DNA of 64,000 nt from Odobenus rosmarus divergens (taxonomy: Eukaryota; Chordata; Mammalia; Carnivora; Odobenidae): the NCBI RefSeq assembly GCF_000321225.1, contig NW_004450661.1, forward strand, positions 995,848 to 1,059,847. The letters are read 5' to 3'. The notes beneath the pieces are model-generated. The model searched no databases. It saw only the letters and a program-made list of their open reading frames with translations, and had not been told where the DNA came from. Positions 20,501 through 64,000 of the stretch are shown in pieces. A program made the translations under genes and the position numbers. Each line of letters opens with the position of its first letter. Within the stretch, counting starts at the first letter, position 1.

Positions 20501-23500
20501 TTTAGATTGTTTCATTGAGTTTCATAGGATTCTAGGGTTTAGTACTGATGTGGCTCTTAGACATTTCTTGGTCCAGCCCCCTATGTGATAGCTGGGGAAC
20601 CCAAAGCCTAGATACTTCGTGTTGTAGCTGGGACAGTAACTTGGCTCTCTTCAGTCATGGGCACTCAGTGCTGCACTGTACTAGGCTGACTCACTGCACC
20701 CCTCCAGCTGTGCTGGTTCCCTTTCTGGAAAACTGTCTCAGCATCTTGAACGTAAGGATTGTAAGTTACCTGTTTCCGTTTAGAGTTACAGAAAAGAATG
20801 AGTCAGATTACCCATGAAGCACATTTAGAATTTGATGAATTGTGGGATCTGATAGAGGTTTTTTACATTGTTGATATTTACAGAAGGGTAGTTAGAAATT
20901 TATCATTGTTAAGCATATTCTATTTTCATTTTCACCAGTTGTAACTTTAAGCATTTTTGGAAATGTTTGGAAAACTGAGTCCTGCATTTCCCATTGAGAT
21001 ATGATCTTATTTCAGAAATGCTTTCTCATCATTTCTGAAAAATGTACTAGGGAACATAATAGAAAAGTAGTGATGCACTAATCCTTTCTTTTCCTTACCA
21101 GCTTTATTTGTTCTCTACTTATTATATACCGAATTCATTTATTTTATTTTTAAAATTTTTTTCCTAATTCATTTATTTTTTCAGCATATATTTATTCCTT
21201 GGGGCTTATGCATAAAAATACCGTACTAAGTTCTGTGGGAGACAGAAATGAGAGTAACATTCCTTGTATGTTTATATTGGATTTTTGCTAGTGGACACCT
21301 GTTGAAGGCATTGACCTAATCCTGAAAGATATTTCCACATTCTGGTTGAGAATTGCCTCCCGTAGGGCCATGAGATTAAAGTTCATAGGACACGGTGCTA
21401 TTGAGTACAGAAATTGCTATACGGTAGGTATGAGAGGTGCTCAGCTTCTAGTACTGAGCCAGGTCCTGTGCAAAGGGGGTGACCGAGATATGAGCCCTTC
21501 CAGGGCCTGCCGCTCTACAGAGGGTTCTTAAGCTCCATGTCCTCAGCAGGCTGCCCTGCAACAGCTGGTCCTTCCCCCGGTGCCACCAAGGCTGCCATGG
21601 CTTCCTCCACAGGTGCTGATAGTGGTGCCCTTCCGGGAAGCTGCTCTGCGAGTGGTACAGCTCTTCATCAGCCTCCTTGAGGGTGACAGTAAGAAGAAAA
21701 TAATTGTGAGCAACAAAAAGAGGTTTAAGGGAGAGTATGGCTCAGATCCTGAGGAAAGACCACCCAACCTGAAGAGGCCTGAGGATTACGAAGCCGTGTT
21801 TGTCGGCAACATCGATGACCACTTTCGGATCGGTAATTCCCTCTCGTCAGAACTCAAACCCTGAGGGACCTATGGTGTGAGGTTCACATGGCCGGAGGCT
21901 AGAAGCCTAGAATTAGGCATTCTCTCAGTGGGGTGAAATGTCCTCCTACCAGGACCGGGGTGCATTTGAGACATGTCTGCCAGGGGAGAGAGTCTTGCTT
22001 GGGTAACAGGGTGGAGCACCTCTGAAGCTGTATGTAAAGACACATGCACATTTATGGCAGAAATGTCTCGGCACACCCATAGCTAGTAGTTCTGCTACAG
22101 GGGGAGTTGGAAGTGACAGGGGCTGAGTGGGTCACTCTGGGGAGGCTGAATAAGCTGAGTGTCTATGCGTAATGGTAGACCTCCCTCCCACTGGCCATGT
22201 AGAGTGCCTACCCCAGAATTATCTCCACTCACAACTTACCGACTGCCCCTGAACTTGTCACATCTTTGCTTGTCTCTCATTCAACTCCTGTATACTTGGT
22301 TGGTTGTATATTGATAAAGTTCTTGGGAAAATGTCTTTTAGTCACATAAGCTCATTTGAAAAACATTTACTAAGCATCTGTTGTGTGCCAGCTACTGCTA
22401 AGAAGCTGAAGATATAGAAATAAAAGTTATGCTTCCTGCTGTTAAGGAAATCTGGCCTAATGGGAAAATAGTACAGAATGATAAGTGCTGATCAGAGGAT
22501 GCAGTGGATATTCTGGGAGCATTTAAAGCAATTTCTGTACTCAAAACAGGGATAGGATAGTTAGGGAACGCATCCTAGTGGAGTTGCCATTTATAGAAAG
22601 TTGAGACCTGATTAAGATTTAGTCTGTTACAAAGAGCGGTGGTCAGAGTGGAGGAAAAGTGTTCACACAGGGAACTGCACATGCAGAGGCATCAGGGTGA
22701 ATACGTCGAGCATGACCTAAGGTGTATATAGGCTTCAGCATGGCTGGAGTGTCAGGTGTGGGGACGAGAGAGTAGATGTTTAGTTTTAAACATTGTGCAG
22801 GTGTCCTGCAAGCTGCTGATATATATGTTAGTTTGGGGCTCAGGAAAGAGATGTGGACTGGAAATACAGATCTTTGTGGAGGTGGTGTTACAGCCGTGGT
22901 TAGTGAATAAATTTACCCATTTATTACCCATAAACTTATATAGGGTGTGAGTAGAACTTAGAGCCGAACCAGGGACTTGTGGAAGAGCTGTTTGGATCTG
23001 GAAACGTAGATATGGGCTGGCCAGGGCAGGGATAGAAAGAGAAATGAGTGTTAAAGAAATGGAAACCACCAGTGAGGAAAAGAACATTTCGAGGAGGATG
23101 TGCTCAATATACTGCTTTATGTGTTTGTGAGTGTCCTTGAATTGGTGACCTTAGCAAGAGTCCTTTCAGTGGAGTCCTGAGATTCAGGCCAGATTGCAGT
23201 GCACTGAGGAATGAGTGGGGAGACCACTCTGGAGAAGTTTGAGCCAAAAGGAAGAGAATGAGAGCTAGACAGGACCATAGAGGCAAGGGGGGGATGATTA
23301 TTTTAGGAAGGAAAACAACTGGAGCATGGTCACGTGCTAAGGGGAAAGATGTGAAGGTACAGCATGCATGGTGAGCGGTTGGAAGCTAATGGCTTGGTGG
23401 GAACTAATGATTGGTTGTGTACTTGGCTGTTTTGTGTAGGAGTGGCAATACTTCAGAGAAGCATCCGACTCTATGCCCCCTTTTACTCCTCCGACATCCT

Positions 23501-26500
23501 CATTGCCTCCCCACTGGGCTTGAGGACCATCATTGGTGCAGAAGGAGAGAAGAAGAGAGATTTTGACTTTTTGTCTTCCATTGAGCTTCTCATCATTGAT
23601 CAAGCTGACATTTACCTGATGCAGAACTGGGAGCATGTCCTGGTAATGGCGGTCATTCACATTTAGAATGACAACATTCACATTTAGAGAGAGAAGAAGC
23701 TCAGTAATTTAAGTTTTAAAGGGTTATTTAAGTCCAAATGAGTACTCAGTTTGGGAATGGAAATATTTCACGTTTTCCAATTTGAAAAAGCCTTTTGTCT
23801 CCTCTTCTACCCACAGGTTGGCAATAATTATGCAGAGAAGTAAAAATTTTTACCAGTATTTTCAAATCTCCCGAAAAGATTTCTTCCCCTTTAAGGTCAC
23901 CTCTGCTAATAGACCACTTCAGTGTGGCTGGTTGGTAGATTGGTTCCTCCTGACCAGGAATGTCTTTACCTAATATAATTCCTCCTACAGTTTATGCTCA
24001 TTTTCTTTTGTTTGGCCTTCAGTGGAAATGGGAAAACATTGCTCAAGATTTCTTAATGTATGATCTTGTCTTACAGAGAAATGTAGGATGTCCTTATCCT
24101 CCTACTATAGCTTGTGGCTGTAATTTTTTCCTCCTTCCCCACATACTCTGCAGTGTTGTCCATTTTAGGATTGGACAAAATTGCTTTGGAACAGTCCTTA
24201 TCACAGAACCATAGGTTTGTTTTTTTAAGGCATTTGAGAACTCACTTCTACAGTCCCAGGGCTTGTAGGGACCCAGAAAGATTGGGGCAAATAAAGGGGA
24301 TACTTTAATTTATAAAGTATGGAATACATTTATAGTACTCATTATCCTTTAATATATATTTCAAAGTGAAAATATAATTAAAATAGAAAAGGCATGTTGA
24401 TGGTTGAGTCATATTCTGTATTTTGAGGGAAAGGCATGTATAGTGGCTCTGGGGATATCCTAATGTTTTGAGAACCAGGTCACTGAAGAACAACAGCTCT
24501 ATTTTCCATGTCATTTCCTTTCTTATCCAAGTCTGAGACTGAGGAACCGCTAGAGTGACCGGGGTGGCATTTCAGAAGTTCCTTTCAAAGGAATATTCTT
24601 GGAGGTACTATTTTGATTCTTTTTGAAAGATCCAAGAGGTAGCCAGTTTTAGGTTACCTTCCTGTCGGGGGTGTTCACCTAAGTGGGCAATTCACACCTA
24701 TCTGAGCCTTGATTTTCTGGTGGAATTTGGAATTTGGCTGTACATACTCCATGGGGTTAGTAAGATGACAGACTTGTAAAATGCTTAGCAATGCCCAACA
24801 GGTACATCCTCAATAAAAATTAATACTAGTGTTATTTCTGCTCAAAGCATTTGATGAACCATATGAACCTACTGCCCTTGGATTCTCATGGGGTGGACTT
24901 CTCTCGAGTGAGGATGTGGAACCTCAATAATTGGTCCAAGTACTATCGCCAGACCCTGCTTTTTGGGGCCCTACAGGATGCCCAGATCAACTCCGTGTTC
25001 AACAAGTACTGCGTCAATCTGCAAGGCCAGGTGGGCTCCTCCTCGTTTCTGTGGATCTTCATGAAGCATTGTGTACTGTTTGGGTCATGAGGCTTAAGGC
25101 GAGGATGGCTCACTTCCTAATTTCTCATTGACTCCTGGCAGGTGGCTGTGAGGAACGTCCCAATGACAGGCTCCATCAGCCATGTCCTGGTGCAGCTTCC
25201 ACATGTCTTCCAGAGGATGGAAGCTGAAAACCTAGCTTCGGTGATTGATGCCAGGTACCTATCCCTCCCTAGTCCCTAGTCCCTGGGGATCACAGAGAGG
25301 GGGATTTAGCTTCAGGATATGGATTTAGAATTGGATTCTGTGTTGATTTTACTGACTACTGTTTACCAAATGATAGGAGATCATTGAACCCGGTCGTCAC
25401 TGACAGAGGAGGAAACTGAGGCCCAGAGAGGTCCTAGTTCTCCTAGCTAGTCAGTGGCAGCATTGGTACTGTAAATCAGGGATTCTTCCCACGAGATTGT
25501 GGCATTTCTTAATTACATTACACTGCTTAATGCTGCTAAGTGTTCCATGCCAACAACTTAATTATAAGCCCTTCAGGGCAAGAACTAATGCCCAGAAGCA
25601 AACATTGCAACCTTTAAATATTCAACTATAAGCTCTTTGCCTTTTGCCTCCTGCAAATACAAAGGTTCCAGTATTTCTAATTCTCTCTGCATCTTCCCTG
25701 TCTCTTCATTGTGTTTCATCGGGAGACCCATGGTAGGAGAAAGATGCTTTGCATATGAGAGGTATTCAGTAATTATGTGTTGATTAATTGACCACTGAAT
25801 GAATGAATGCATGAATGGTGTGCTTATCTACTTCTAGAATAATTCTCTGGGATACACTGACATCACGTCTGGTTTTTTACAGTGAATTGAGTTAGCACTT
25901 TTTTTTTTTTATCCTTACATAATCTCTTTGTGATGATGTAAACCAGATTGGCCTCTTTGAGGGAGGTAGAAGGAGACTGTGACTTGCCCAGGGTAAACAA
26001 GTTAGTGGTGACATTGTGGGCTAATCTCTAGATCATTGACTTTGCCCTTTGCTTTTTCAAATCAGGTTTAACTTTTTTGTGAACAAGATTTTGCCTCAGT
26101 ATCGTGACGCCGTCATGTCTCACACACTCATCTATGTCCCCTCCTACTTTGACTTTGTGCGCCTCCGGAATTACTTCAAGAAGGAAGAACTGAATTTCAC
26201 CCACATCTGCGAGTACACCCAGAAGTCTGGTATCTCCAGGGCTAGACAGTTCTTCCTTCAAGGAGAGAAACAATTCTTGCTCCTCACAGAGCGCTTCCAT
26301 TTCTACAAAAGGTAAAGTAGTGCTGGGTTTAGAGTGTCCTCTCAGGAGGGGAAGACGCAGTGCAAATTATGGCCTGCTTCTGAGTGTGTGGCAGTCTTTG
26401 CAGTGCTATAAGGTCCTCTTTCACTCTACTTTCTGTGGAGAAGCCAGAGGGTTTTGGAACTCTTCTTGGTTGGTTGGTCTCTTCCCAAAATGGGTATTGT

Positions 26501-29500
26501 TGAAAAGGTAGAGACAAGTGAGTGACTGTAGTATAATCTGTGTGTAGATCTGGAGTGGGTCCACACTTGGAATACTTCCTGTAGTTGTGGTTGTACACCT
26601 CAAAAAAGATATTACTCAATTGAACACTTTGAGGTAGCACAACTGAAGTGAATCTCGGAAGGAGAGGGAACTGTCATGGAAGCACAGACAAAATAGCAGA
26701 GGCTATGTGGTCTGTGGAATTGGAGGCTGAGCACACTGTCAGTGTTCAGAGAGTTACGGTGTGTTTTGAGGAGGTGCACACACACTTCCTCACAAGGAGA
26801 CCAGGACTGAGGGGCCCCTTGTTTGTGGGAGGCAAAAGGGGAGGGGCTTAGAGTTGATTATTTAGTGATTTCAGTATTTGCTTAGCTTCCCCATTATGTG
26901 AATTTTGACAAATTGCATTTGCTTTTTAGAAAAAATTCTAATTAGAGCGTTAGTAATATTGAGCCTTCTGTAACTATTTGCAGCCACTTGTGCCCCCAGA
27001 AGTCAGGTATTTTATTGTTTTGCCAAGTCTGTCTCTGCTGTCAAATGAAAAAGCCCTTTTTAAACCCTTATCTATAGAGAGATGAAAATTGCATCCTATT
27101 ATCTTTTCCTTCCTGATGTGCAATAATGTTCAGTGAATTGATGCCTTTGCCTTTACTGTTTAACTCTCAGTCATATATACTACTGAGGGGCATGTTTTCT
27201 CAGAGAACCCCAAACACAGAAGCCAGAATCTTTCAGGCTTTGGAGCATATTCGATGATGCTTGTTGGCATTGCTTTGCCTTTTAGTTTATGCTTATGTTA
27301 GGATGTGCTCCACAGACATGCTCTTGTTACCAAGATGGGGAGGGAGGAATCCAGCAGCCTGCCACAGCAGAGGAGGCTGACATGACATGACCTCTTTGGG
27401 TATTCTGCTGACTGGGTGATCTGAGAATGGAGAGATGAGAAATGGCTGCACTTGTGTTCCCTGGGCTCCCTTTTTGGCCATCTACACAGGGCTGCTTGGC
27501 CAAACAGTATTAATGCCTGCTTGTTGGCATCATTATTTGCTTTGTTCCAGTAAGTTGTTGTTTTCATTCATGTTGGAAAGTGATATTTTGGGGGAGTTTG
27601 CACCCAGCAGGTCTTAAGAGCCCTTCGTTTTCCATCAGCTTGACACATGAAAGCAAGCCTTTTAAGTGAAGTGGATGGATTGGAAAATGTCCCAGTGTGA
27701 TTGTTTATAGCAAGTATGAATTAGGCTGGGATGAAGACTGTTCTCAAAGAGCAGCTTTTTAAGGAGAGGGCATGATGTCTCAAGTAGGCATGACAGTCCC
27801 CTGTCTTACACCACTGTATTTACCAAACTCTTTTGCCCCCAAATCACAATAAAGACAAACCTAGCATGTATCACTTACTTGATACCCTGGGCCAGGTTAA
27901 TTGGTATATTCTGTGTTTAAGATGAATAGAAATAATGTGCTTCAGTGTTCTGCGACTGCTAATTATCTCAAGGTTTCCAACTATAGATTTTTTTGCTTGA
28001 GAGGTCACCAAGGTGATGAGAGGTGCTTTTATCTGCAATGCCTTTGTGATTTGATTTGACCTTGGGAGAGGTACATGTATGTTAAACTTTAGTATCCAAC
28101 TCTGAAATTCGTTATTTATATTCTCTGTGGAAGTAGGCAGTGTTAGAAATATCACTGCTCATTTGCAAGCTGGCAAAATATTTTCAACCTGAAGATTAGT
28201 CGTGTTTTGTGGGTTTGGGGGATGAAACCAGTAGAATTAGGATTGGACAGGCCTTTGGTCATGATGGCCTGCCTGAGGATGGGATGCTTCGCAGCTCTTT
28301 CCCTGAGCATGTCGCTGGGTTGCTACAGCCGGAGGATTCTCAACCAGGGTGTGAGTCAGAAACTCTGGAGGTGGGATTTATGGGGTTGGGAAAGGCTGCT
28401 GGTGTGTTCCTGAGTATCCCCGGCCCTACATGAGAATCCCAGTTCTGAAAGTAGCAGACCATCTTTATAGACAATGTGGAGGAGCTAGCCTTTCACATCA
28501 GCTGTAGGTGCCTCCTTTATCTTTCACGGTTGGCAGGTGAGCTAGACCTCTGGCATGTCCTTTGTCCTTAGTTTAAGGACATCCAGTACACACATATACA
28601 CACACACACACAGGCTTTTTTTTTTTTAAAGATACTAAATTGGGATCACACTGTACTTACGGGATTTTTTTTCTTTTATATGTTTTAAGTGCTTATTGAA
28701 AAACAATTTTAATCTGTTAACACTTTGGCATATATATGTGTATATCATGGGTCCATTTTTAAGTTGGTATATATAGCTCTGTCACATCCTCCCTTCCCCC
28801 AACTTTTTATTTGGAAAGATTTCATTTCAAAGGAAATTGTAAGACTAATAGTGAACATCTATAACTCCTTGGACTTCACCAGCTTTTAGCATTTTGCCAC
28901 ATTTGCATTCACCCCTCTTCTCTTTCTTTCCTTCTCTCTGTCCATTCACATCTTATTTTTCCTGCTGTGGAGCATTTGTAAATAAACTGCAGGAGGCTTA
29001 ATGATGCTGAACCCCTAACTCTTTCAGCGTGTAGTTCCTAACTTTTATCTAACCACAATACCATTATCATACCACTTGTTATTACTACAGTAATATCATC
29101 TGATATATAGTCTGTATTCAGATTTTCCTAGTTGTCCCTACGTTGACCATTATAGCTGTTTCATCCCCTAATCCAGGATTCAGTTAAGAATCATACATTA
29201 CATTTGGTTAATGTTTCTTTAGTCTATCTTAGTAGTTCTCAGCTGGGGGCAGTTTTCCTGGAGACATTTTTGGTTGTCAAGACTAGAGGGTTATTCTAGT
29301 GATCTAGTGGTTTTAATGGGTTGAGGTGAGGATGCTTCTAGATATCCTGGAGTGCACAGGATAGCCCCACAACAGAGAATTATCTGGCTCAATATGTCAT
29401 TAATGCCAAGGTTAAGAAACCTTGACCTAGAATAATTCTCTTGCTTTTTTTTTTCTTTGACTTTTTTTTTTAATGAATTCAATCCAGTTTCCTTTAGAAT

Positions 29501-32500
29501 GTTCCAGAGTCTGGATTGTCTAATTATTATTTTTTTTATTATTTAGATTAGTGGTTCCCAAACTTTGCCATACATTAGAATCCCCTTAGGGAGCTTTTAA
29601 AGATCCAAATACCCAGGTCATATCCCAATGCCAATTAAATCCCTGTGTCTGGGGCTGGGGATGAAGCATGGATACTTCATACATGCAAACAGGTGATTCA
29701 AAGTACAGCCAAGTTGGGAATCACTGACTTAAATATCTTTGGTAAGAACTCTACATAGAGGATATTATATACTTTACACTGCATCTTGTCACATAATGTC
29801 AGTTTATATCATATTTGGAGATGCTAAATTGTAATCATTTGGTCAAGGTGGGTCTGCTAGGGCGCCTGGGTGGCTCAAGTCACTAAGCGTCTGCCTTCAG
29901 CTCAGGTCATGATCCCAGGGTCCTGGGGTCGAGCCCCACATCGGGTTCCCTGCTTGGCGGCAAGCCTGCTTCTCCCTCTCCCACTCCCCCTGCTTGTGTT
30001 CCCTCTCTCGCTGTGTCTCTCTGTGTCAAATAAATAACTAAAATCTTAAAAAAAAAAAAAGAAAAAAGGTGGGTCTTCTAGATCTCTCCATTGTAAAGGT
30101 ACCTTTTCTATTTAATTAATAAGTAATCTATGAGGTGTGTATTGCATCCTTTTTTAATGGCTACATAGTGTCATGTTGTATGGATATATAATTAGCCCAG
30201 TTTCCTTTTAATGGTATATAGATTTTTTAAAAAATTGTTCTATTATATGCAACAGGGCCAAGAACATCCATATGCATAGTTGATGGCATAGTTGCTTACT
30301 TATTTCATTGGGATAAATGTGGAGAGGAAAACCTGTTAGCTCAAAATCTGTACACAATGAAAAATTTATTATACATTGCTGCTTATTTGCTCTCTACTAT
30401 CTTCCCTATATCTTGTCTCCCCCTCCCCAAAATACACACACCTGATAATTTGTACTCCATTGGCTTATTTCTGCAAAACCCCACTTGTTGCCAGTGACTT
30501 GATAGCCAAAATGATACATCAGTGTTTTAATGTCTTTTTCTTGGATTTTTGTTTTTTTATAACTATCTATTGAATGTAGAGGGTGAGATGAGTAGTACTT
30601 ACACCCAGGCACACCTCTTACTCTGTCAGGCCACTAGTGTTGGAGTTGTGAATCTAGTCAGGATTTGGTTATTTTTGTGGCTAACCTTCCACTCTTCACA
30701 GACTTCAAATTCTCTAGCACACAGTGGCTTAGTGTGGGGCCTGGGGTGCCAGAGGGTCTTTTCTGTGTCCTGATTGTCTCTCTGCTATCACCAAGCCCTG
30801 TTCTCCTGTGCCAGGGTAGGGGGTCTCTCCCCACTCTAGCCCCTCCCCCAGTAGCAGGCTGTTCTTGCTTGTTACTCCCTGTGAGGCTTGAGGTAGGGTT
30901 GGGGTTCTCTTGGTGCAGCTTGGTTTTAGGCAAGCCCTGTTCGTTCTGGGCTGTGGAGGTGGGGCCTTCTCAGCATTCCTGTAGCACACTCCATGGCAGC
31001 CGAACCCTACCTGGTATCTGTAAGGGGTCTTGGCAGGAAAGAGTTTCCTGCTTCTCCCACGGTGGTGGCAGACCTCTGCTTATGTCAGTGCAGGATCTTG
31101 GGCTGAGTGGATTTCGTGCTCTTTCCCCAGGGACAGTCGGCTGTTGCTTTCTACTCGGTATAAGTCTTGTGATGGGGAAGGGTTGGGTGGGGTTTTACTG
31201 CTCCAGATGACTTGCTTTATTTACCAACCCCCCCCAACAGTTGACCTTTGCCCCTCTCTCATCAATTTCAGAGTTTTGCTTCATATAGATAGGGGTCTGG
31301 GAAGTGAGTGGTTTCACCAAAGGGGTCCCTCTCAGGTCTTCTGCCTTGCCTCCCATCTTTCTCCAGGACTCCCAATGGAGGCCTGTGGAAAAGAATTCGT
31401 GAGTGAGTGTGAGCTAAAGGAGCGCCCACAAATCTCAGGGATTCTGAACTGTCACATAGGCCCACATTTGCCCTTTAAGAATTTGTTAAAAGTGTAGCTG
31501 TTTTCTTGCTACCCACTTTCTTGGCAGCTGCCGTCTTCCTTCTGTGCTCCTTCAGGAGTGAAGTAGTTCTTGTTTCCTGTCTCTGCAGAGGGCTTTGTCA
31601 CTTCAGAGTTCAGTTCAGTGGTGGGCTGGCTCTTGAGATCTGGTTGTGTGTCTCTTCCCAACTCCTGAGCTCAGTAACATGACATTGGTAGCTTGAAATT
31701 GTCCATGGTGGGAATATTTACACCACAGAAATTGGCAGTTGCTTCAAATCAGCACCCACTCTTCCTCAGTGAGAAGCAGTTATTAAGCATACACCAGCGC
31801 ACCATTGAATCAATTCACTTGGTTGCCTTGTGACATCAGCTGTCTAGGCCCAAGAAAAGGAATGCTTTTGTAAGTTATCTGGCTTTTTCTTGGTAGTGTG
31901 GAAGCAGTATTCTCTTGAGTTTACTGTATACTAAGCAGAAGAAGAACTCTATGTTTATTTTTGTTTATTTTGATAACTAGTGAGGTAGAACAGTTTCTTC
32001 AAGTCATTAACCGTTAGAATTTCTTCTTTATGATAAGGTTAAGGGTGAACCAAGTAGTGGATTGCAGTTATAGTTTGGAAGACGAGGATTGTTACAGAGG
32101 TCAGGATGATCCATGAGATAAGAAGACAAGGAAAGCTTATCCTCTGTGAATAAAATAAAATTCCCAAGGGAGTCTAACATCAGCAGTATAGGAGACAGCT
32201 TTAATAGGAAAAATCAGAACCTTGTCAACTATAAAATCTTTTGTTATGGGGCCCCAGAGGGAATAATTGACCTCGACCCAAACCATACGGTGAGTCCCTA
32301 GGGTCTCCACCCCCCACCACCACTGTGAGCAGCAGGGAAAGAAGTGCATACGCTGTTGAAATTAATTGCTTTTCCATAATGCTTAATGGGTCCTCAGGCA
32401 GGATTTTGTAAATGGATGAACTTGGGACATCTGCCATGGAGGTAGCATGTCTACAGAGTGACAAGAAAAGATTGATGGGAACGCATTTACAGTTTATGCA

Positions 32501-33146
32501 GTTTATCTCACACACTGGGTCTGACCTCCTCTCCATTGTAGAACATTCTGTTTTGCCTGATTATATTAAGGGTAATGTTAAGTTGTTAAGTATTTGCTTT
32601 TTAAGTTTTCTGTGACAGATCTTCAGTCCTAGTCTACCTCAGTCTACCCAGAGTAGACTCAAGAAATGATAAAATTTATTTTATCATGATCTTAAGCCAA
32701 ACATTAGGAATTCAAACGTGTTGTCACAAAATAAGTCCTTCCAACCCAAGTTAAAATAACCTTTTGTCTGTTGGCTGTGTGTGCGTTACCCTCCTCCTTG
32801 GGCGTGCAGCGGCAGGAGTGAGCTCTGCCCCTGTCAAACTCTCAGGTAGCTTTTCCATACATTTTCTCAAGTAGATATAGCCTCTCTTTCCCCTTCTAAT
32901 AGGTATACCATTAAAGGGATCAGGAACCTGATTTTCTATGAACTGCCAACGTACCCGCACTTCTACAGTGAAGTCTGTAACATGCTGAGCGCCACCAGCA
33001 GAGGAGGGGAAGCCACCTGGACTTGCACTGTCCTCTACTCCAAGTATGATGCCCAGAGGCTGGCTGCTGTGGTTGGTGTGGAGTGGGCTGCACAGATGCT
33101 ACAGTCCAAGAAGAATGTCCACCTCTTCATCACTGGAGAGAGATGA
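11019..33146 (+). CDS. UTP25: UTP25 (DIEXF), small-subunit processome component; complete 12-exon coding region
   Basis: The spliced product (755 residues) begins [13 protein letters not shown] and matches mammalian UTP25/DIEXF along its whole length, recognised from memory of the human protein. UTP25 is a nucleolar protein of the SSU processome needed for early pre-rRNA cleavages that release 18S rRNA; the zebrafish orthologue Def controls digestive organ growth and p53 turnover. Seen here: an acidic, Ser/Glu-rich N-terminus with an uninterrupted Asp/Glu tract at residues 84-97; a helicase-like core with PFREAA (359-364, like motif Ia), SPLGL (450-454, like motif Ib) and DQAD (480-483, in the place of DEAD); and a conserved C-terminal domain. 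No Walker A (GxGKT) is visible, as is known for this pseudo-helicase family. Joined exons: 11019-11125, 11875-11914, 13048-13288, 15278-15448, 17562-17650, 19378-19788, 21613-21832, 23440-23642, 24848-25030, 25142-25254, 26066-26311, 32903-33146; total 2268 nt with one stop. Confidence 0.97.
11875..11914 (+). CDS. UTP25: UTP25 coding exon 2 (40 nt microexon, residues 36-49)
   Basis: The acceptor is cttctcag at 11873-11874 and the donor GTAATG at 11915. The exon completes the split Lys codon and encodes [13 protein letters not shown], which aligns with the human segment VSRKEAKPQICQL. It is only 40 nt and too short to be found as an open frame. Confidence 0.93.
12449..12657 (-). mobile_element. 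diverged CAN SINE, antisense, UTP25 intron 2
   Basis: It has a T/G-rich tail with repeated gggtttt, a GA-rich body and the head gagccactcaagcatccc. The 15-bp duplication ctagactagcttttt at 12434-12448 and 12658-12672 is perfect. Confidence 0.9.
12836..13024 (+). mobile_element. CAN SINE directly before the UTP25 exon 3 acceptor
   Basis: A full plus-oriented copy. The 17-bp duplication, aaaatttcccttttt plus cc at 12819-12835, recurs with one change at 13025-13041. The downstream copy is the polypyrimidine tract of exon 3, six bases before its first base (13048). Confidence 0.96.
13048..13288 (+). CDS. UTP25: UTP25 coding exon 3 (residues 50-130, acidic region)
   Basis: The acceptor is ccttttag at 13046-13047 and the donor is GTAAGT from 13289. 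It encodes the Ser/Glu-rich stretch and the acidic tract (residues 84-97), expected to be disordered and typical of nucleolar proteins. A CAN SINE lies directly upstream and its target-site duplication forms the polypyrimidine tract of this exon. The exon adds 1 nt of phase for exon 4. Confidence 0.95.
13801..14210 (-). mobile_element. old L1M LINE fragment, antisense, UTP25 intron 3
   Basis: The stretch tatggaggtatgatttacat through aaatggaagcatacagtatg matches the antisense 3' end of old L1M elements. Confidence 0.7.
14551..14574. repeat. (GT)n microsatellite, UTP25 intron 3
   Basis: About twelve GT units, followed by TATG-type repeats. Confidence 0.9.
14690..14896 (-). mobile_element. CAN SINE, antisense, UTP25 intron 3
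   Basis: Standard antisense copy ending gagccacccaggcgcccc, with duplication attagcttctt at 14679-14689 and 14897-14907. It lies in an old LINE fragment. Confidence 0.93.
15278..15448 (+). CDS. UTP25: UTP25 coding exon 4 (residues 130-187)
   Basis: The acceptor is atcacag at 15276-15277. The donor, AAG|GTCAGA at 15449, is weaker than its neighbours. The exon encodes [10 protein letters not shown] and the well conserved block [20 protein letters not shown]. The first codon is split with exon 3 (Ser) and the last with exon 5 (Asp). Confidence 0.94.
16133..16327 (-). mobile_element. CAN SINE, antisense, UTP25 intron 4
   Basis: Standard antisense copy with a perfect 16-bp duplication, acccagctctaccatt, at 16117-16132 and 16328-16343. 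Confidence 0.95.
16480..16681 (+). mobile_element. CAN SINE of an older subfamily, UTP25 intron 4
   Basis: The head is ggcgcctgggtggctcag, but the middle differs from the common type (ttgatttctgcttaggtca). It is flanked by short imperfect repeats of ttggaggag and atggaggag and ends in an A tail. Confidence 0.9.
17562..17650 (+). CDS. UTP25: UTP25 coding exon 5 (residues 187-216)
   Basis: The acceptor is gaattag at 17560-17561 and the donor AAA|GTAAGT. The exon encodes [19 protein letters not shown] and then [11 protein letters not shown], matching the human segment apart from a few substitutions. Its 89 nt restore phase 0 at the end. Confidence 0.94.
18190..18610 (-). mobile_element. old L1M fragment, antisense, UTP25 intron 5
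   Basis: It contains cccagtttcccccagtggta and aaattgacattgacacacc, typical of antisense L1M 3' ends, and a 22-base T run at about 18536. Confidence 0.6.
18832..19023 (-). mobile_element. CAN SINE, antisense, UTP25 intron 5
   Basis: Standard antisense copy with duplication tggagccctttttttt starting at 18818 and 19024. The exact left edge is uncertain because the tail merges with the T run. Confidence 0.92.
19090..19300 (+). mobile_element. MIR SINE, sense, UTP25 intron 5
   Basis: The run ctctctgaacctctgctttc then taagatgagcattatagtgt and gaattaaatgaggtg follows MIR order. Confidence 0.65.
19378..19788 (+). CDS. UTP25: UTP25 coding exon 6 (residues 217-353)
   Basis: This is the largest exon (411 nt, 137 codons, phase 0 at both ends). 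The acceptor is tccctag at 19376-19377 and the donor AAG|GTAAGT. It starts [13 protein letters not shown] and includes [17 protein letters not shown] and a [15 protein letters not shown] end. It begins the conserved UTP25 core; no P-loop is present. Confidence 0.96.
21613..21832 (+). CDS. UTP25: UTP25 coding exon 7 (residues 354-427, helicase motif Ia-like)
   Basis: The acceptor is ctccacag at 21611-21612 and the donor G|GTAATT. The exon encodes [18 protein letters not shown], where PFREAA stands where DEAD-box proteins have PTRELA. It ends HFRI with the split Gly codon. Confidence 0.96.
23440..23642 (+). CDS. UTP25: UTP25 coding exon 8 (residues 427-494, motif Ib- and II-like)
   Basis: The acceptor is tgtgtag at 23438-23439 and the donor CTG|GTAATG. 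It contains [14 protein letters not shown] (like motif Ib) and [19 protein letters not shown], with DQAD at residues 480-483 in place of the DEAD box. The invariant catalytic Glu of the Walker B motif is replaced by Gln, consistent with a non-canonical helicase fold. Confidence 0.96.
24848..25030 (+). CDS. UTP25: UTP25 coding exon 9 (residues 495-555)
   Basis: The acceptor is ctcaaag at 24846-24847, with a weak pyrimidine tract, and the donor CAG|GTGGGC. The exon encodes [15 protein letters not shown] through KYCVNLQGQ and is phase 0 at both ends (61 codons). It matches human almost perfectly. Confidence 0.95.
25142..25254 (+). CDS. UTP25: UTP25 coding exon 10 (residues 556-593)
   Basis: The acceptor is ctggcag at 25140-25141 and the donor CAG|GTACCT. 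The exon encodes [19 protein letters not shown] through ENLASVIDA. Intron 9, only 111 nt, is the shortest in the gene. Confidence 0.95.
25375..25475 (-). mobile_element. MIR SINE, antisense, UTP25 intron 10
   Basis: It contains gaggaaactgaggcccagag and ctagtcagtggcag, the reverse complement of the MIR core. Confidence 0.65.
26066..26311 (+). CDS. UTP25: UTP25 coding exon 11 (residues 593-675)
   Basis: The acceptor is aaatcag at 26064-26065 and the donor AAG|GTAAAG. It encodes [37 protein letters not shown] and the [19 protein letters not shown] block, which corresponds to the second RecA-like half of the helicase-like core. Confidence 0.95.
28790..29225 (-). mobile_element. old L1M fragment, antisense, UTP25 intron 11
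   Basis: It carries ttagcattttgccacatttg, agaatcatacattacatttg and related blocks of an antisense L1M 3' UTR. Confidence 0.65.
29232..29425 (+). mobile_element. hAT-type non-autonomous element, UTP25 intron 11
   Basis: It runs from gtagttctcagctgggggca to ccaaggttaagaaaccttg, with the block gcacaggatagccccacaac. I recognise a common MER1-type element but not its exact name. Confidence 0.6.
29548..29732 (+). mobile_element. MER5-type hAT-Charlie relic, UTP25 intron 11
   Basis: Terminal tagtggttcccaaactttg and cagccaagttgggaatcactg form the inverted ends of a MER5-like element. Confidence 0.75.
29861..30065 (+). mobile_element. CAN SINE, plus, UTP25 intron 11
   Basis: Full copy with A tail. 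The 16-bp duplication aaggtgggtctgctag at 29845-29860 recurs with one change at 30066-30081. Confidence 0.95.
30082..32902. other. distal part of UTP25 intron 11, no gene recognised
   Basis: A plus-strand frame of 181 codons at 30665-31210 is open but low in complexity (rich in Gly, Leu, Ser and Cys) and has no recognisable domain; I treat it as chance. No repeat family is identified with confidence. Confidence 0.4.
32903..33146 (+). CDS. UTP25: UTP25 coding exon 12 and stop (residues 675-755)
   Basis: The acceptor is ttctaatag at 32901-32902. It encodes [20 protein letters not shown] through [10 protein letters not shown] and ends in TGA at 33144-33146. From memory the human protein ends GEK and has Arg where Trp736 (VEWAAQ) lies here. 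Intron 11 (6.6 kb) is the longest in the gene and carries most of its LINE and hAT relics. Confidence 0.95.
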
Positions 33147-47689: not shown

Positions 47690-49204
47690 TTTATTATTTT
47701 TTAAATTTTAGGTTTTTATTTTAATTCCAGTTAGTTAACATACAGTGTCACATTAGTTTCAGGTGTACAATATAGTAACTCACTTCCATATATTACCTGC
47801 TACTCATCACAACGAGTGTGCTCCTTAATCCCCGTCACCTAGTTCACCCATCCCCCCCGCCCACCTCCCCTCTGGTAACCATTAGTGTGTTCTCTGTAGT
47901 TAAGAGTCTGGGGGCGCCTGGGCGGCTCAGTCATTAAGCATCTGCCTTCGACTCGGGTCATGGTCCCAGGGTCCTGGGATCGAGCCCCACATCGGGCTCC
48001 CTGCTCAGCGGGAAGCCTGCTTCTCCCTCTCCGTCTGCCGCTCCCCCGGCTTGTGTTTCCTCTTTCGCTGTGTCTCTCTCTGTCAAATAAATAGATAAAA
48101 TCTTTTTTAAAAAAATAGTCTGTTTCTTGGTTTGTCTCTCTCTGTCTTATTTTTTCCCCATTGCTTGTTTGTTTTGTTTCTTAAATTCCACATATGGATA
48201 AAATCATATGGTATTTGTCTTTCTCTGACTGACTTATTTTGCTTAACTTTATACCCTCCAGGTACATCCATGTTGTGGCAAATGGCAAGAGTCATTCTTT
48301 TTTATGGCTGAATAATATATATATATATACACACACACCACATCTTCTTTATCCATTCATCAGTGATGGACGTTTGGGCTGCTTCCGTATCTTGGCTATT
48401 GTAAATAATGCTGCTATAAACATTGGGGTGCATGTATCTCTTCGAATTAGAATTCTTGTATTCTTTGGTCAAATACCCAGTAGCGCAATTGCTAGATCAT
48501 AAGGTAGTTCTATTTTTGACCTTTTGAAGAACCTCTGTAATGTTTTCCACAGTGGCTGCATCTGTTTGCATTCCTACCAACAGTGAATGAGGGTTCCTTT
48601 TTGTCCACATCCTCGTCAACACCTGGTGTTTCTTGTGTTGTTGGTTTTAACCATTCTGACAGGTGTGAAGTGATATCTCATTGATTTGCATTTCCCTGAT
48701 GGTAAGTGATGCTGAGCATCTTTTCATGTGTCTGTTGGCCATCTATATGTCTTCTCTGGAGAAATGTCTATTCATGTCTTCTGCCTATTTTTTAGTTGGA
48801 TTATTCGTTTTTTGGGTGTTGAGTTTTAAAAGTTCTTTATATATTTTGGATACTAACCGTTTATTGGATATGTCATTTGCAAATATCTTCTCCCATTCTG
48901 TCGGTTGTCTTTTAGTTTTGTTGATTGTTTCCTTTGCTGTGCAGAAGTTTTTTATTTTGATGTAGTCCCAATAGTTTATTTTTGCTTTTGTTTCTCTTGC
49001 CTCAGGAGACCTATCTAGAAAGAAGTTGCTATGGCTGATGTCAAAGAAGTTACTGCCTGTGCTCTCCTCTAGGAGTTTTATGATTTCAGGTCTCACATTT
49101 AGGTCTTTAATCCATTTTGAGTTTATTTTTGTATATGGTGTAAGATAGTGGTCCAGTTTCATTCTTTTGCATGTAGCTGTCCAGTTTTCCCAACACCGTT
49201 TCTA
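47690..49204 (-). mobile_element. 5'-truncated L1 LINE, antisense
   Basis: The left end is the L1 3' UTR (ccagttagttaacatacag). The minus-strand frame at 48785-49162 encodes the C-terminal part of L1 ORF2p, with the recognisable block [23 protein letters not shown]2 continues in broken frames to about 48240. The copy stops at about 49204 and is split by a SINE at 47911-48116. It is not active. Confidence 0.92.
47911..48116 (+). mobile_element. CAN SINE, plus, inside the younger L1
   Basis: Full copy with head gggcgcctgggcggctcag and A tail. The L1 text is interrupted at agagtctg (left) and resumes at agtctgtttcttgg (right). Confidence 0.92.
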
Positions 49205-58700: not shown

Positions 58701-61339
58701 GTGACAGGAGGATACCAATGTTCTAGGGGTACAAAGGGGGAGAAAATAACATCAGGTTGAAAGATTTGGTTTAGAAAGAGCTTCGTGGAGAAGGTTTTAA
58801 CAAAGAGTTAGTGGACTGATTGCCTGGAGCTCAAGGACAACTGGGGAGGAAAATAACTTTGCTGAGAAAGATAGGGAACATAACCAGCTGGAACAATAAC
58901 ACTTGATGAGAATGAACACTCTCACAATTAACCCTTTCTTGAACACAGTGGAAAGTACAGTCAGATCTGTGCATATGTGGGTTGGTAGGATGATTTTACC
59001 TACTTTCTGACCAGTCTGGGAATTGTCAGGAAAATGGAGGTGAATTCAGGGCAAGAAGGGCCCTGCCAGGGCCCCTGCCTGGTAGGTCTCATCATGCTCC
59101 ACAGGACAAAGCCGCTCACTGAAGTCTCCATTGGTCACTGGAACTCTCACAAAGGATGACAGGTACTATCTTTCTGAAGGTTGTCATTCCTTGAACCCAG
59201 GAACCCTCCCTAAATTTGTTCTACGGGGTTGTGCCTACCCAGAATGAGGGACGGGGTGGCCATGCAGTTCTTCTTTCAGGAAAGTCTTCACAACCCAGGA
59301 GGGCATAGGTGTGGGTGGGGATGATTCAGCCCCAAGGCAGGGAGGAGACCAAATGTCCTTCAGGGAGCCCATTTAGCCTGAGAATCCTGGATTATCAAGG
59401 GCAAGTGGCTGCATAATGATGACCTATTTTTCAGCTCCCTGAGTGATGGCAGGTGTGGTTAATGCAGCAGTCTTTCATCTTCTGCTGTGTATCACCTCCC
59501 CCCCCACCCCCCACCTAAACCTAGAGATTATTCCTTCCTTCCCGGTGTCCTTTCTTTTTCTTTGTCTGAAAATAACGAGATGTCATGAGTCTGCCATACA
59601 TCACCGTATCAGTAGCAAGTGGTGACTTCTGATTAGTGGGATACTGCGGGAGCAGCAGGAGGGACCATGGCAACAGCACTGGCTGCCCAGCCCGGCAGCC
59701 CTGTCGTCCCTCAGAGACCGGCGTTCTGTCTGTGTCAACAAGAATTTGTCTGGGGATTATTCATGTAGCTGGACATAATCAATTCAGCTGTTTGCTAGAG
59801 CAGCAAATGGGTTTTTTGCCAGTGATATTAGGATCAAGCTGAGTAATAGGATGTGTCCATACCAGAGTAATGTCCATTTATTAGCTTCTGTGGGAACACA
59901 CACATTAAGGAAATCACATTTTGCATGGCTCTGTAGCTGAGGGAGCTGCTTGTTAAAAATTTCCACTCAAGCAACCTCGAGCTAAGGATTTGTATTCCAA
60001 AGAGCTGGACCTATTTCTCCAAAAGTATTTACTTGAGAAGTAGAAAAATCCCACAAGCACAATGAGCACAAATGACTCTGCCTTATATAAAAATCTCTAT
60101 GGGAAAGTTAACCTTAGTCGAGGGGAAAGGCTATAGGTCTGTGGAGAGGGCAACCCAGGGCAAATGGCTGACATGCTGTCTTTCAACATAATGCCAACTG
60201 GCTTTTTTTAACAGTGACCTAGAGTCGACTTTAATTGCCTGTAAGGTTACACTTGGAGCAAGAAGAGCCATCTAGGCCATTGGGAGAAGTAGCTGCCTAC
60301 TGGACTGCAGGGACTGGGAGAAGGTTCCTTCAGTCCTCCTCAGACATCTCTCTTTTGCTTCACTGATGACTAAAATCCCGCCATTTCAGGTTCATTCCTT
60401 GGCTTGAGCTTTGTCCTTGCCCAAAGATATCACTAGGAAATGCCACATGTTAGGCCTCTTGGAATTGTATAGTGCAAAACTGGTAGGCTATGGGAGGACC
60501 TGGTGGAGAGGAGATTATAGGCAAGGTAGAGAGAGGGTAAATAGTAGTAGTTCCAGAAAGGTAAGAAAAAGTGGATTTGAAGACAAGTTTTGCCTATTTT
60601 GAGGCTTGCAAAAGAAAATTTAGTAAGTAGAAGTCCCAATCTCTGTCGCTGGGGAGCTTGCAAGTCTCAGACACTTTGTAAGGTACATCTCATGTAGCCT
60701 AGACATCAGGTCTCCACAGAGCCAATGTGCTAGGCTTCAAAATGTCTTCAGGGTATATTTTTCTCCAGCTGGGAAGGAAAAAGGAGAAATGAAGAGAAGA
60801 TTATCAGGTGAGACAAACCCACCTCTTCTTTCCCAACATAGAGGTCCTGAGGCAGTCCTGGGGGAGGGGATATGAATGATTCCCTGTTCCTCCATGAGCC
60901 TATCAAGCCATGTCTACCACAGGAGGAAGCCCCCTTGGCAGCAACTGGGCCTTTGAAGCAGTCAGTTTTGTGTGATCTCATGAAATTATCCAAATTCCCT
61001 GGAAGACAATAAGGCAATTCCTTCAGCTCAGAAAACAAAGGGGTCTACTGCCAGGCAAACACTTCCCTCAGCCCAGCTCCAGTGGCCCTGGTCCCCTTCT
61101 GTCATTTCCCAGATGCTCCTTCAGAGACCAGCTTGCCCTCCTTCGCCTTCACAGATGTCCCTTGTGCTTATTCAACTTCTCATACCTCTTTTCTCCTCAA
61201 GACTAAGTTCTGAGTTGTTTAGTAGCTCATCAGCTACCGTCTCCTTTGCTATCCTCAAAAACAAACCCAGAGGCCTTTTGTTTGTGTAACCAGTTGCCAT
61301 GAGGAAGAAACAGCCAGGATGCAAGGATGTTACAAACAT
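58701..61339. other. intergenic, nothing recognised
   Basis: No gene or repeat identified. Part of it (60770-60864) is copied at the window end. Confidence 0.4.
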
Positions 61340-61980
61340 GGGGTGAACACCAAAGCCCCAGAATTTTACTCCATGCTTCTGGTCACAGTCCCACACCCCT
61401 GGCCCCAGCTTATCCTCCCCGTTACTGCTCAGCCCTTGGCCCCCTTTTCTTCTTAGATCTGGACAATCACACGATGCCACTTCATCGGCCATCTTTAGCT
61501 GGACTTTCCAAGTCTCCATCTCTGGAATCAACTCCTTCTCTGAGCGTGAAAACCCCACATCCAACTGCAAGATCAGCAGTCTCACTTCAGTGTTCCCCAT
61601 CCGGGACCACTCAGCATGTCCCAAACAGAATTCCTTAAGACTTCCCCCAGAGTCTGCTCTCCTACCTGAATTATTTTGTATTGGCTTCAGCAGCCACCCT
61701 ATCACTTAAACCCCAAACCTGGAAAACTTCTCAGACAGCTTCTTCTCCTTCTTCCCCATACCCCCATATCTACCCACAAAGTCTTACCCCTACTTACCAT
61801 CTCTGTTCCCAACTTCTCCCTTCTTCTCTACTATTGCTCCCCATTCCCACCCCAGTTAGGCCCTCATCATTTTTCTCTCACATTTTCCAAAAGTAAGAGT
61901 TGTCCTTGATCTGACTTTTTTGGCAATATTACCACAGAATGGTTCCCAGAAGGCGGATATGATCATGTTATCCTCCTGAT
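61340..61980 (+). mobile_element. probable diverged L2 LINE, sense
   Basis: Pyrimidine-rich sequence with L2-like order: acatccaactgcaagatcag, catgtcccaaacagaattcc, then gttgtccttgatctgac. It continues past the SINE at 61998. Long open frames on both strands here are by-products. Part of it (61596-61668) is copied at the window end. Confidence 0.45.
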
Positions 61981-61997
61981 TAAAATCCTCAGCATAC

Positions 61998-62122
61998 AGG
62001 GGCGCCTGGCTGGCTCAGTCGGAAGAGCATGCAACTCTTGATCTTGGGGTCATGAGTGCAAGCCCCACATTGGCTGTAGAGATTACATAAACAAACAAAC
62101 AAACAAACTTGAAAAATAAAAG
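61998..62122 (+). mobile_element. short tRNA-type SINE, plus, inside an L2-like stretch
   Basis: Head ggggcgcctggctggctcag and tRNA-like body, no CT-rich part, ending in an acaaacaa repeat. Duplication aaaatcctcagcatac at 61982-61997 recurs with one change at 62124-62139. Confidence 0.9.
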
Positions 62123-62536
62123 TAAAATCCTCAGCACACAATCCAAGCTTCTTAGGATGGCCTGTGAGGTAGGCAACAAAGTGTCTCTGCTTAACACTGC
62201 AATTTTATCTCTGCTAAAGACACCTTCTTGCCTCATCCCGCTTCCCCCTTTTGCCATGTTCCAGGCCAACCATGCGTCTTCATGCTTTTTCTGCCTTATT
62301 CATGGTGTGCCCTCTGCCGCTCATTGACCTCATTGTTACTAAGTCATTTTTTTTTACAAGAGGACCTCCCTTTCTAGCAGGTAGGTCTGAAGTTAGGGCA
62401 GAACAATAATTGTGATGTAGCTGGCGAAGAACTCAGGGCAATTCAACTACCTTCTTCATCTAAGGTCCATTATGGTGGCTTGACATCATGACAGTGGACT
62501 GACCCTGTATTTCTAGTATAAATGGAAATACACTTT

Positions 62537-62732
62537 TTTTTTTAAAAGATTTTATTTGTTTATTTGAGAGAGAGAGAGAATGAGAGATAGAAAGCACGAG
62601 AGGGAAGAGGGTCAGAGGGAGAAGCAGACTCCCCGCTGAGCAGGAAGCCCAATGTGGGACTCGATCCCGGGACTCCAGGATCATGACCTGAGCCGAAGGC
62701 AGTCGCTTAACCAACTGAGCCACCCAGGCGCC
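62537..62732 (-). mobile_element. CAN SINE, antisense
   Basis: Standard copy with perfect 14-bp duplication tggaaatacacttt at 62523-62536 and 62733-62746. Confidence 0.95.
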
Positions 62733-62804
62733 TGGAAATACACTTTAACTGAGCTAATATGAAGAGCTTAAATAGATAAGGAAGCAATTTCTGGAGTCAA
62801 AACA

Positions 62805-62990
62805 CTTGGGTTCTCATGCTCATCACTTAACCCTTAGTTTCCTCATCTTTAAAATGGGAACAGTAATAATACTTATCTCAGAAGGTTGTTGTGAGAGTAA
62901 AGAAATTAATACAAGTAAAGATCTTAGATGTTAGAACAGTGCCTGGCAGAGAGTGCTTGCTAAATCTAAGCTGTTGATGTTGTTACTAGC
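62805..62990 (+). mobile_element. MIR SINE, sense
   Basis: It contains cttagtttcctcatctttaa, aggttgttgtgagagtaaag and agaacagtgcctggcagaga. Confidence 0.75.
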
Positions 62991-63356
62991 AGCAGCAGTA
63001 GTATTACTTATAGAATTCCATGTTCCTTATCAAATCATCAGAAGGATTTTACCGCCATCACTGTTGGAAAGAGTGTGGGAAGACTGTGTGACTCAGCAGT
63101 TATGTTTGCTTTCCCAGTGGTGGCAGAAACTGACTGACAGGTACTACAGTGCCAATGAAAACACACAACCCATTCCTCCTCACCCCACCCTGCTTTATAT
63201 TTGATAAAGGGAAATCCTGGCCTGGTAAACCTGATACTGGGTAAAAGCACTTCTTGCCTCTCTTTAGGCTTAAGCCACTAGAGCCTTCCACAGTTCGGCC
63301 AGAATCCATGGTACTGCCAATCACTCCATGGCCCTGCATCCCTGTGGGCTATAGTC

Positions 63357-63423
<67 letters not shown>

Positions 63424-63639
63424 CTCCCTCTCTCTTTCTTTCTTTTCCTTTCTTTCTCTTTCTTTCTTTCTTTCAGATTTATTTATTTATTCTGGCAGAG
63501 GGGAGAGGGAGAGAGAACCTCAAGCAGACTCTATACTGAGCGCGAAGCCCAACAAGGGGCTTGATCTCATCACCCTGAGATCACCACTTGAGCCAAAACC
63601 AAGAGTTGGATGCTCAACCGAAAGCCACCCAGGTGCCCC
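63357..63639 (-). mobile_element. old CAN SINE with expanded TTTC tail
   Basis: The body and head (63476-63639) are diverged. The tail is a TTTC microsatellite of about 119 bp (63357-63475). Flanks ctgtgggctatagtctc and ctgggggccacagtttc look like an old target duplication. Confidence 0.85.
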
Positions 63640-63791
63640 TGGGGGCCACAGTTTCTAAAGCTCCCCCACCTCCACGATCTCATGTGCTTCTCACAGTGAC
63701 CCATCCCCACCTGCAGACAGACTCTGTCGCACACCTCTGGAAAGGCATTCCATTGCCATTTGGATGGACACTCATTAAACAGCTTTTTCTT

Positions 63792-63832
63792 TTTTTTTTT
63801 TAAGATTTTATTTATTTATTTGACACAGAGAG
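63792..63832 (-). mobile_element. CAN SINE tail fragment, broken off
   Basis: T run, taagattttatttatttat and gacacagagag, then an abrupt switch at 63833 to sequence copied from 61596 onward. The rest of the SINE is absent. Confidence 0.85.
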
Positions 63833-63905
63833 CCCATCCGGGACCACTCAGCATGTCCCAAACAGAATTCCTTAAGACTTCCCCCAGAGTCTGCTCTCCT
63901 ACCTG
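63833..63905 (+). repeat. perfect direct copy of 61596-61668
   Basis: All 73 bases match 61596-61668 by eye. The source is otherwise single-copy in the window. It is joined at 63906 to a second copied segment. Confidence 0.95.
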
Positions 63906-64000
63906 TGGGAAGGAAAAAGGAGAAATGAAGAGAAGATTATCAGGTGAGACAAACCCACCTCTTCTTTCCCAACATAGAGGTCCTGAGGCAGTCCTGGGGG
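63906..64000 (+). repeat. perfect direct copy of 60770-60864, running off the window end
   Basis: All 95 bases match 60770-60864 by eye, and the match is cut only by the window edge. The order of the two copied segments is reversed relative to their sources. Confidence 0.95.

What the first reader, a model, noticed from the sequence alone, without database searches (positions are those of the whole stretch)
63792..64000. Window ends in a chimera of a broken SINE and two perfect direct copies of upstream sequence in reversed order
A CAN SINE starts normally at 63792 and breaks at 63832. The next 73 bases (63833-63905) are identical to 61596-61668, and the following 95 bases (63906-64000) are identical to 60770-60864 and continue past the window. 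Both copies are in the same orientation as their sources, but in reversed order, and I see no microhomology of note at the junctions. Perfect identity in otherwise single-copy, neutrally evolving DNA means very recent origin. The two readings are an assembly artefact (chimeric contig end or bad gap fill) or a template-switching rearrangement.
Basis: seen in the sequence. Interest (0 to 1): 0.75.

Follow-up and report, generated by a model that had tools for sequence, protein, structure and literature searches.

The report
Tandem-duplication-like junction inside a SINE
In what looks like a carnivore genome the window ends in a join where the sequence jumps back about 3 kb and starts again, with a 73-base scrap of the same stretch in the seam; it is either an ordinary small tandem duplication or an assembly mistake.

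Summary
63833-63905 equals 61596-61668 (73/73) and 63906-64000 equals 60770-60864 (95/95), both direct, with sharp ends. Outside SINE-like copies they hold all 110 repeated 30-mers of more than two letters. The break lies inside a minus-strand CAN-type SINE.

"A chimera of two copies in reversed order" is better read as one junction. From 63832 the sequence returns to 60770, with a 73-bp scrap of the intervening unit at the seam, as expected of a head-to-tail duplication of a 3,063-bp unit with one templated insertion. Untested prediction: past 64000 it continues as 60865-63832 and then the whole SINE.

Both joins are blunt where testable. This fits end-joining or an artefact; a weak in-register similarity before the second join keeps microhomeology-guided template switching open. 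Splicing is not supported, nor a plain 5'-truncated SINE insertion. Zero differences in 168 bases only bounds divergence below 1.8%, so "very recent" is overstated. An assembly artefact stays nearly as likely. The deciding sequence past 64000 could not be fetched: the genome search did not complete 12 times.

The parts
60770..63832 (+). inferred duplicated unit, 3,063 bp, first copy
   Evidence: Its start equals the sequence after the seam and its end is the last base before the seam (size). That the second copy runs through the whole unit is inferred.
60770..60864 (+). source of the 95-base copy at the window's end
   Evidence: 95/95 identical to 63906-64000, direct.
61596..61668 (+). source of the 73-base piece in the seam, inside the unit
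   Evidence: 73/73 identical to 63833-63905, direct.
63357..63474 (.). (TTTC)n microsatellite about 360 bp before the break; possible fragile site (inference)
   Evidence: Tandem Repeats Finder, period 4, 29.5 copies, 89% matches.
63783..63832 (-). tail end of a CAN-type SINE, cut at 63832
   Evidence: Matches reference positions 157-207; alignment with seven other copies of the window.
63833..63905 (+). 73-bp templated insert in the seam
   Evidence: Copy of 61596-61668; 0 exact microhomology on the left of the first join and on both sides of the second.
63906..64000 (+). start of the second copy of the unit, cut by the window end
   Evidence: Copy of 60770-60864 up to the last base of the window.

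Best explanation
This is the seam of a small head-to-tail (tandem) duplication of a 3,063-bp non-coding unit (60770-63832), with a 73-bp templated insertion from inside the unit (61596-61668). Inferred course: a break or stalled fork inside the CAN SINE, 31 bases past its T run; a short piece of nearby sequence copied or captured at the end; then joining to 60770 of the sister or re-replicated strand. Shown: the three pieces, their identity, order, orientation and blunt joins. Inferred: that the 60770 copy runs on through the whole unit, that the event is in the animal's DNA and not only in the assembly, and the repair route.
For: Both backward jumps are direct, and the inserted piece comes from inside the interval that the junction would duplicate, so one duplication junction with one insert covers all that is seen. 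The 60770 copy has not ended in the 95 bases held. The join is continuous: no N in the window. Known kind: templated-insertion cycles that re-replicate a segment of the host chromosome (PMC7025897, abstract and passages); tandem duplications, some with insertions at the junction, in brc-1 worms (PMC7368036, passages). Poly(dA:dT) is enriched near short-range template switches in great apes (PMC7954356, section 11).
Against: The continuation past 64000 was not seen. Blunt joins are equally what a ligation or assembly join gives: 56% of 20,000 random joins in the region are blunt by the same test. The majority of human germline templated insertions with resolvable junctions show microhomology (PMC8421209, passages), which is absent here in exact form. 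No reads, depth or second assembly could be examined.
Confidence: 0.5

Rival explanations
1. Assembly artefact: a false local duplication made by wrong gap filling or by chimeric library molecules, for instance junction reads of circularised mate-pair fragments, where a high-copy SINE interrupted the assembly.
For: False duplications covered 4-16% of three older vertebrate assemblies; they were most often separated by a gap and sometimes joined through incorrect gap filling (PMC9516828, abstract and passages). A later end joined to an earlier start on the same strand, over 3,063 bp, is also what a circularised fragment gives; mate-pair protocols circularise fragments (PMC3441570, passages; that some such ligations are blunt and without linker is recalled, and the match to this case is my inference). 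The joins are blunt and the break is inside a repeat.
Against: No gap of N at the seam. Two chimeric joins, both from the same 3 kb, have to be chained (implied circles of 2,237 and 899 bp). Overlap-based assemblers do not make joins without overlap unless a molecule carries the join (established knowledge).
Confidence: 0.42
2. A longer chain of local template switches (MMBIR/FoSTeS-like), in which the 60770 piece is just one more short scrap and further pieces follow past 64000.
For: Two local jumps are already seen. [quoted passage not shown] A weak in-register similarity precedes the second join: 11 of 21 bases match, reached by 0.9% of random pairs; best-of-window test 4.3%.
Against: No similarity before the first join (0 of 10 bases) nor after the second (1 of 10); the 4.3% is one of three tests and does not survive correction. 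No exact microhomology. One duplication junction needs fewer steps.
Confidence: 0.05
3. Chimeric retro-insertion: reverse transcription started at the SINE tail and switched to transcripts of the two upstream stretches (the minus strand reads A', B', SINE tail, poly-A).
For: The SINE is on the minus strand and keeps its tail but not its head, the order that tail-primed reverse transcription with template switching would give.
Against: Borders of the copied pieces carry no GT/AG pairs. The bases just after the break show no convincing target-site copy (best local score 6, reached by 11% of 3,000 random pairs), though a copy beyond 64000 cannot be excluded. Both templates would have to come from within about 3.1 kb of the target.
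Confidence: 0.03

Closest known systems
Tandem duplication with templated insertion / local cycle of templated insertions (PMC7025897)
   Same: A string of copied pieces returns to the host chromosome and re-replicates a segment of it; same-strand, backward return.
   Different: There somatic, in cancer, and typically between chromosomes; here (if real) germline, about 3 kb, with the insert taken from inside the unit. Full second copy not seen.
MMBIR-type templated insertions (PMC8421209)
   Same: Short local copied insert, more than one template.
   Different: No exact microhomology at the testable joins; only a weak similarity before the second.
False duplication in an assembly (PMC9516828)
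   Same: Adjacent identical duplicate; a seam that may be wrong gap filling.
   Different: No N gap in the seam; a third short piece lies in it; depth and read pairs unknown.

Membership tests
Tandem duplication with templated insertion | End of the unit joined head-to-tail, same strand, to its start | tested here: met
   63832 is followed, after 73 bp, by the direct copy of 60770 onward.
Tandem duplication with templated insertion | Insert at the seam copied from nearby sequence | tested here: met
   73/73 identical to 61596-61668, inside the unit.
Tandem duplication with templated insertion | Second copy covers the whole unit and rejoins the flank | not testable with these tools
   Window ends after 95 bases; genome search unanswered 12 times.
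MMBIR/FoSTeS template switching | Microhomology at the joins | tested here: inconclusive
   0 exact bases at the first join (left side; right side unknown) and at the second (both sides); weak in-register similarity before the second, 4.3% best-of-window, one of three tests.
False duplication (assembly) | Assembly gap between the copies | tested here: not met
   No N in the window. Gap filling is not excluded by this.
False duplication (assembly) | Reduced or missing read depth, discordant read pairs | not testable with these tools
   No reads are held.
SINE insertion, 5'-truncated | Target-site duplication directly after the truncation | tested here: inconclusive
   Best local score 6, reached by 11% of 3,000 random pairs; the bases after the break are a copy of 61596.

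The most novel reading that the evidence does not exclude
A germline tandem duplication in a carnivore that arose in one step by local re-copying from a break inside a CAN SINE near a (TTTC)n tract, with a 73-bp insert from about 2.2 kb away and no exact microhomology at the joins, fixed or segregating in the species: a base-resolved natural example of a blunt-joined local templated-insertion cycle.
Probability: 0.35. Interest if true: 0.25.

Novelty: new member of a known kind. Interest (0 to 1): 0.12.

Why it matters
If real, it is one base-resolved example of how small tandem duplications can form in a mammalian germline, with an insert that names its own template. If false, it marks an assembly error about 27-31 kb beyond the end of the UTP25 coding part that could be mistaken for lineage-specific sequence. 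An effect on genes is not apparent: four frames of the 60.7-63.2 kb stretch gave no Pfam match.

Tried and rejected
Splicing or back-splicing: not supported, the bases flanking the copied pieces form no GT/AG pair on either strand (the donor side of the first join on the + strand is unknown). Ordinary 5'-truncated SINE followed directly by its target-site duplication: not supported. Homology at the second join by gapped local alignment: score 6, reached by 33% of 5,000 random pairs. The matching score of 15 for the first join in that call is void, because the compared stretch includes the copied bases themselves; I discard it. In-register comparison: first join 0 of 10 matching before it; second join 11 of 21 before it (0.9% of random pairs; 4.3% best-of-window) and 1 of 10 after it; suggestive only. 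Purine/pyrimidine tracts: 19-base tracts within 60 bases of two of four breakpoints, 8 at the other two, against a window 95% quantile of 17; suggestive only. A SINE without head is not unusual in itself: of 31 SINE-like clusters 20 reach both ends, 4 lack the tail and 7 lack the head, at least one of the 7 (63398-63434) being a match to the microsatellite. Rfam, 59000-64000: 0 matches at gathering score. Exact patterns of 25 and 26 bases from the second join and from the source of its right side in viral contigs: 0 matches each, expected for animal DNA and uninformative. Six literature searches were for mechanisms and artefacts; none was for this locus, and no claim is made that it is unpublished.

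Full report
What is there. The copies are exact: 63833-63905 equals 61596-61668 and 63906-64000 equals 60770-60864, each stretch occurring exactly twice in the window, with sharp ends. In a self-comparison by BLAST, hits of 90% and more printed, these are the only 100% matches longer than 30 bases. Of 232 repeated 30-mers with more than two letters, both strands, 110 are not wholly inside SINE-like clusters, and all 110 lie on the two diagonals of this finding. The window holds no N.

The SINE. The copy at 63783-63832 is on the minus strand; its tail end faces lower coordinates (T run, then AAGATTTTATTTATTTATTTGACACAGAGAG). It was aligned with seven other copies of the window, and its BLAST match to reference copies ends at 63832 at reference position 157. 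Of 31 SINE-like clusters 20 reach both ends and 7 lack the head. The name CAN SINE, and the impression that these copies are of the non-dog caniform type, are recalled and come from no call.

Where it is. Six open frames on the + strand between 19387 and 33143 match UTP25 families of Pfam, PF22916 in four and PF06862 in two, in profile order, E from 8.3e-17 to 3.9e-35. The finding lies about 27-31 kb beyond the last of them. Four frames of the 60.7-63.2 kb stretch gave no family (one, three).

Reading the junction. The sequence runs to 63832, returns to 61596, copies 73 bases, returns again to 60770 and follows it to the end of the window. Both jumps keep the orientation. A tandem duplication of 60770-63832 (3,063 bp) has such a junction, here with a short copy of the unit's own sequence in the seam. 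Under this reading the reversed order is a consequence and not a second event, and the SINE should be complete at the end of the second copy.

Mechanism. The second join has no exact microhomology on either side and the first none on its left; what the SINE would have gone on with is unseen. Of 20,000 random joins in this region 56% were blunt by the two-sided test, so bluntness by itself says little; it removes the positive mark of microhomology-driven switching. Against this, 11 of the 21 bases before the second join match in register (0.9% of random pairs; best-of-window 4.3%), while the first join has 0 of 10 and the far side of the second 1 of 10. With three tests this is suggestive at most; it leaves a microhomeology-guided switch open. 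[quoted passage not shown] Blunt joints and small insertions are given as marks of NHEJ (PMC6258378, passages). Tandem duplications in brc-1 worms depend on polymerase theta (PMC7368036, passages). The break lies 31 bases past a T run, and poly(dA:dT) is enriched near short-range template switches in great apes (PMC7954356, section 11). A (TTTC)n tract ends about 360 bases before the break. If the event is real I take end-joining with a copied or captured local fragment as most likely.

The artefact. In three older vertebrate assemblies 4-16% of the sequence was falsely duplicated; the copies were most often separated by a gap and sometimes connected through incorrect gap filling (PMC9516828, abstract and passages). 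The polarity, the blunt joins and the 3.06-kb span are also what a circularised mate-pair fragment gives (circularisation described in PMC3441570, passages; blunt linker-free ligation is recalled; the match to this case is my inference). Against it: two separate chimeric joins from the same 3 kb are needed, and there is no gap. I give 0.50 to a real duplication, 0.42 to an artefact, 0.05 to a longer chain of switches and 0.03 to a retro-insertion; these are judgements, not computed.

Age. No difference in 168 bases gives a 95% upper bound of 1.77% divergence. With recalled neutral rates of 1.2-2.2e-9 per site per year that allows up to about 4-7 million years.

RNA-based readings. On the minus strand the order is A', B', SINE tail, poly-A, the layout of a chimeric retrocopy. 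But the borders form no GT/AG pair, no target-site copy follows the break convincingly, and both templates would have to lie within about 3.1 kb of the target.

Verdict. The interpretation moves from 'chimera of two reversed copies' to 'tandem-duplication-type junction with one templated insert'. Whether it is in the animal or only in the assembly cannot be told from this window. Either way the kind is known and the interest is low.

Noticed in passing
window 19387-33143 (+): Exons of UTP25: six open frames match PF22916 and PF06862 in profile order, which places the window over this gene.
   Followed up: partly
window 63357-63638: A (TTTC)n microsatellite (63357-63474) directly abuts the tail side of a minus-strand SINE (63495-63638), as if grown from its tail; a paper on carnivore microsatellites and SINEs was seen in a listing only (PMC1634856).
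   Followed up: no
window 48785-49162 (-): A 125-aa frame that reads like a LINE-1 ORF2 fragment (recalled resemblance; no Pfam match at E 0.01).
   Followed up: no
window 60770-60789: The 60770 breakpoint sits one base before a 19-base purine tract (60771-60789), and a 19-base pyrimidine tract lies at 63783-63801 before the other breakpoint.
   Followed up: partly
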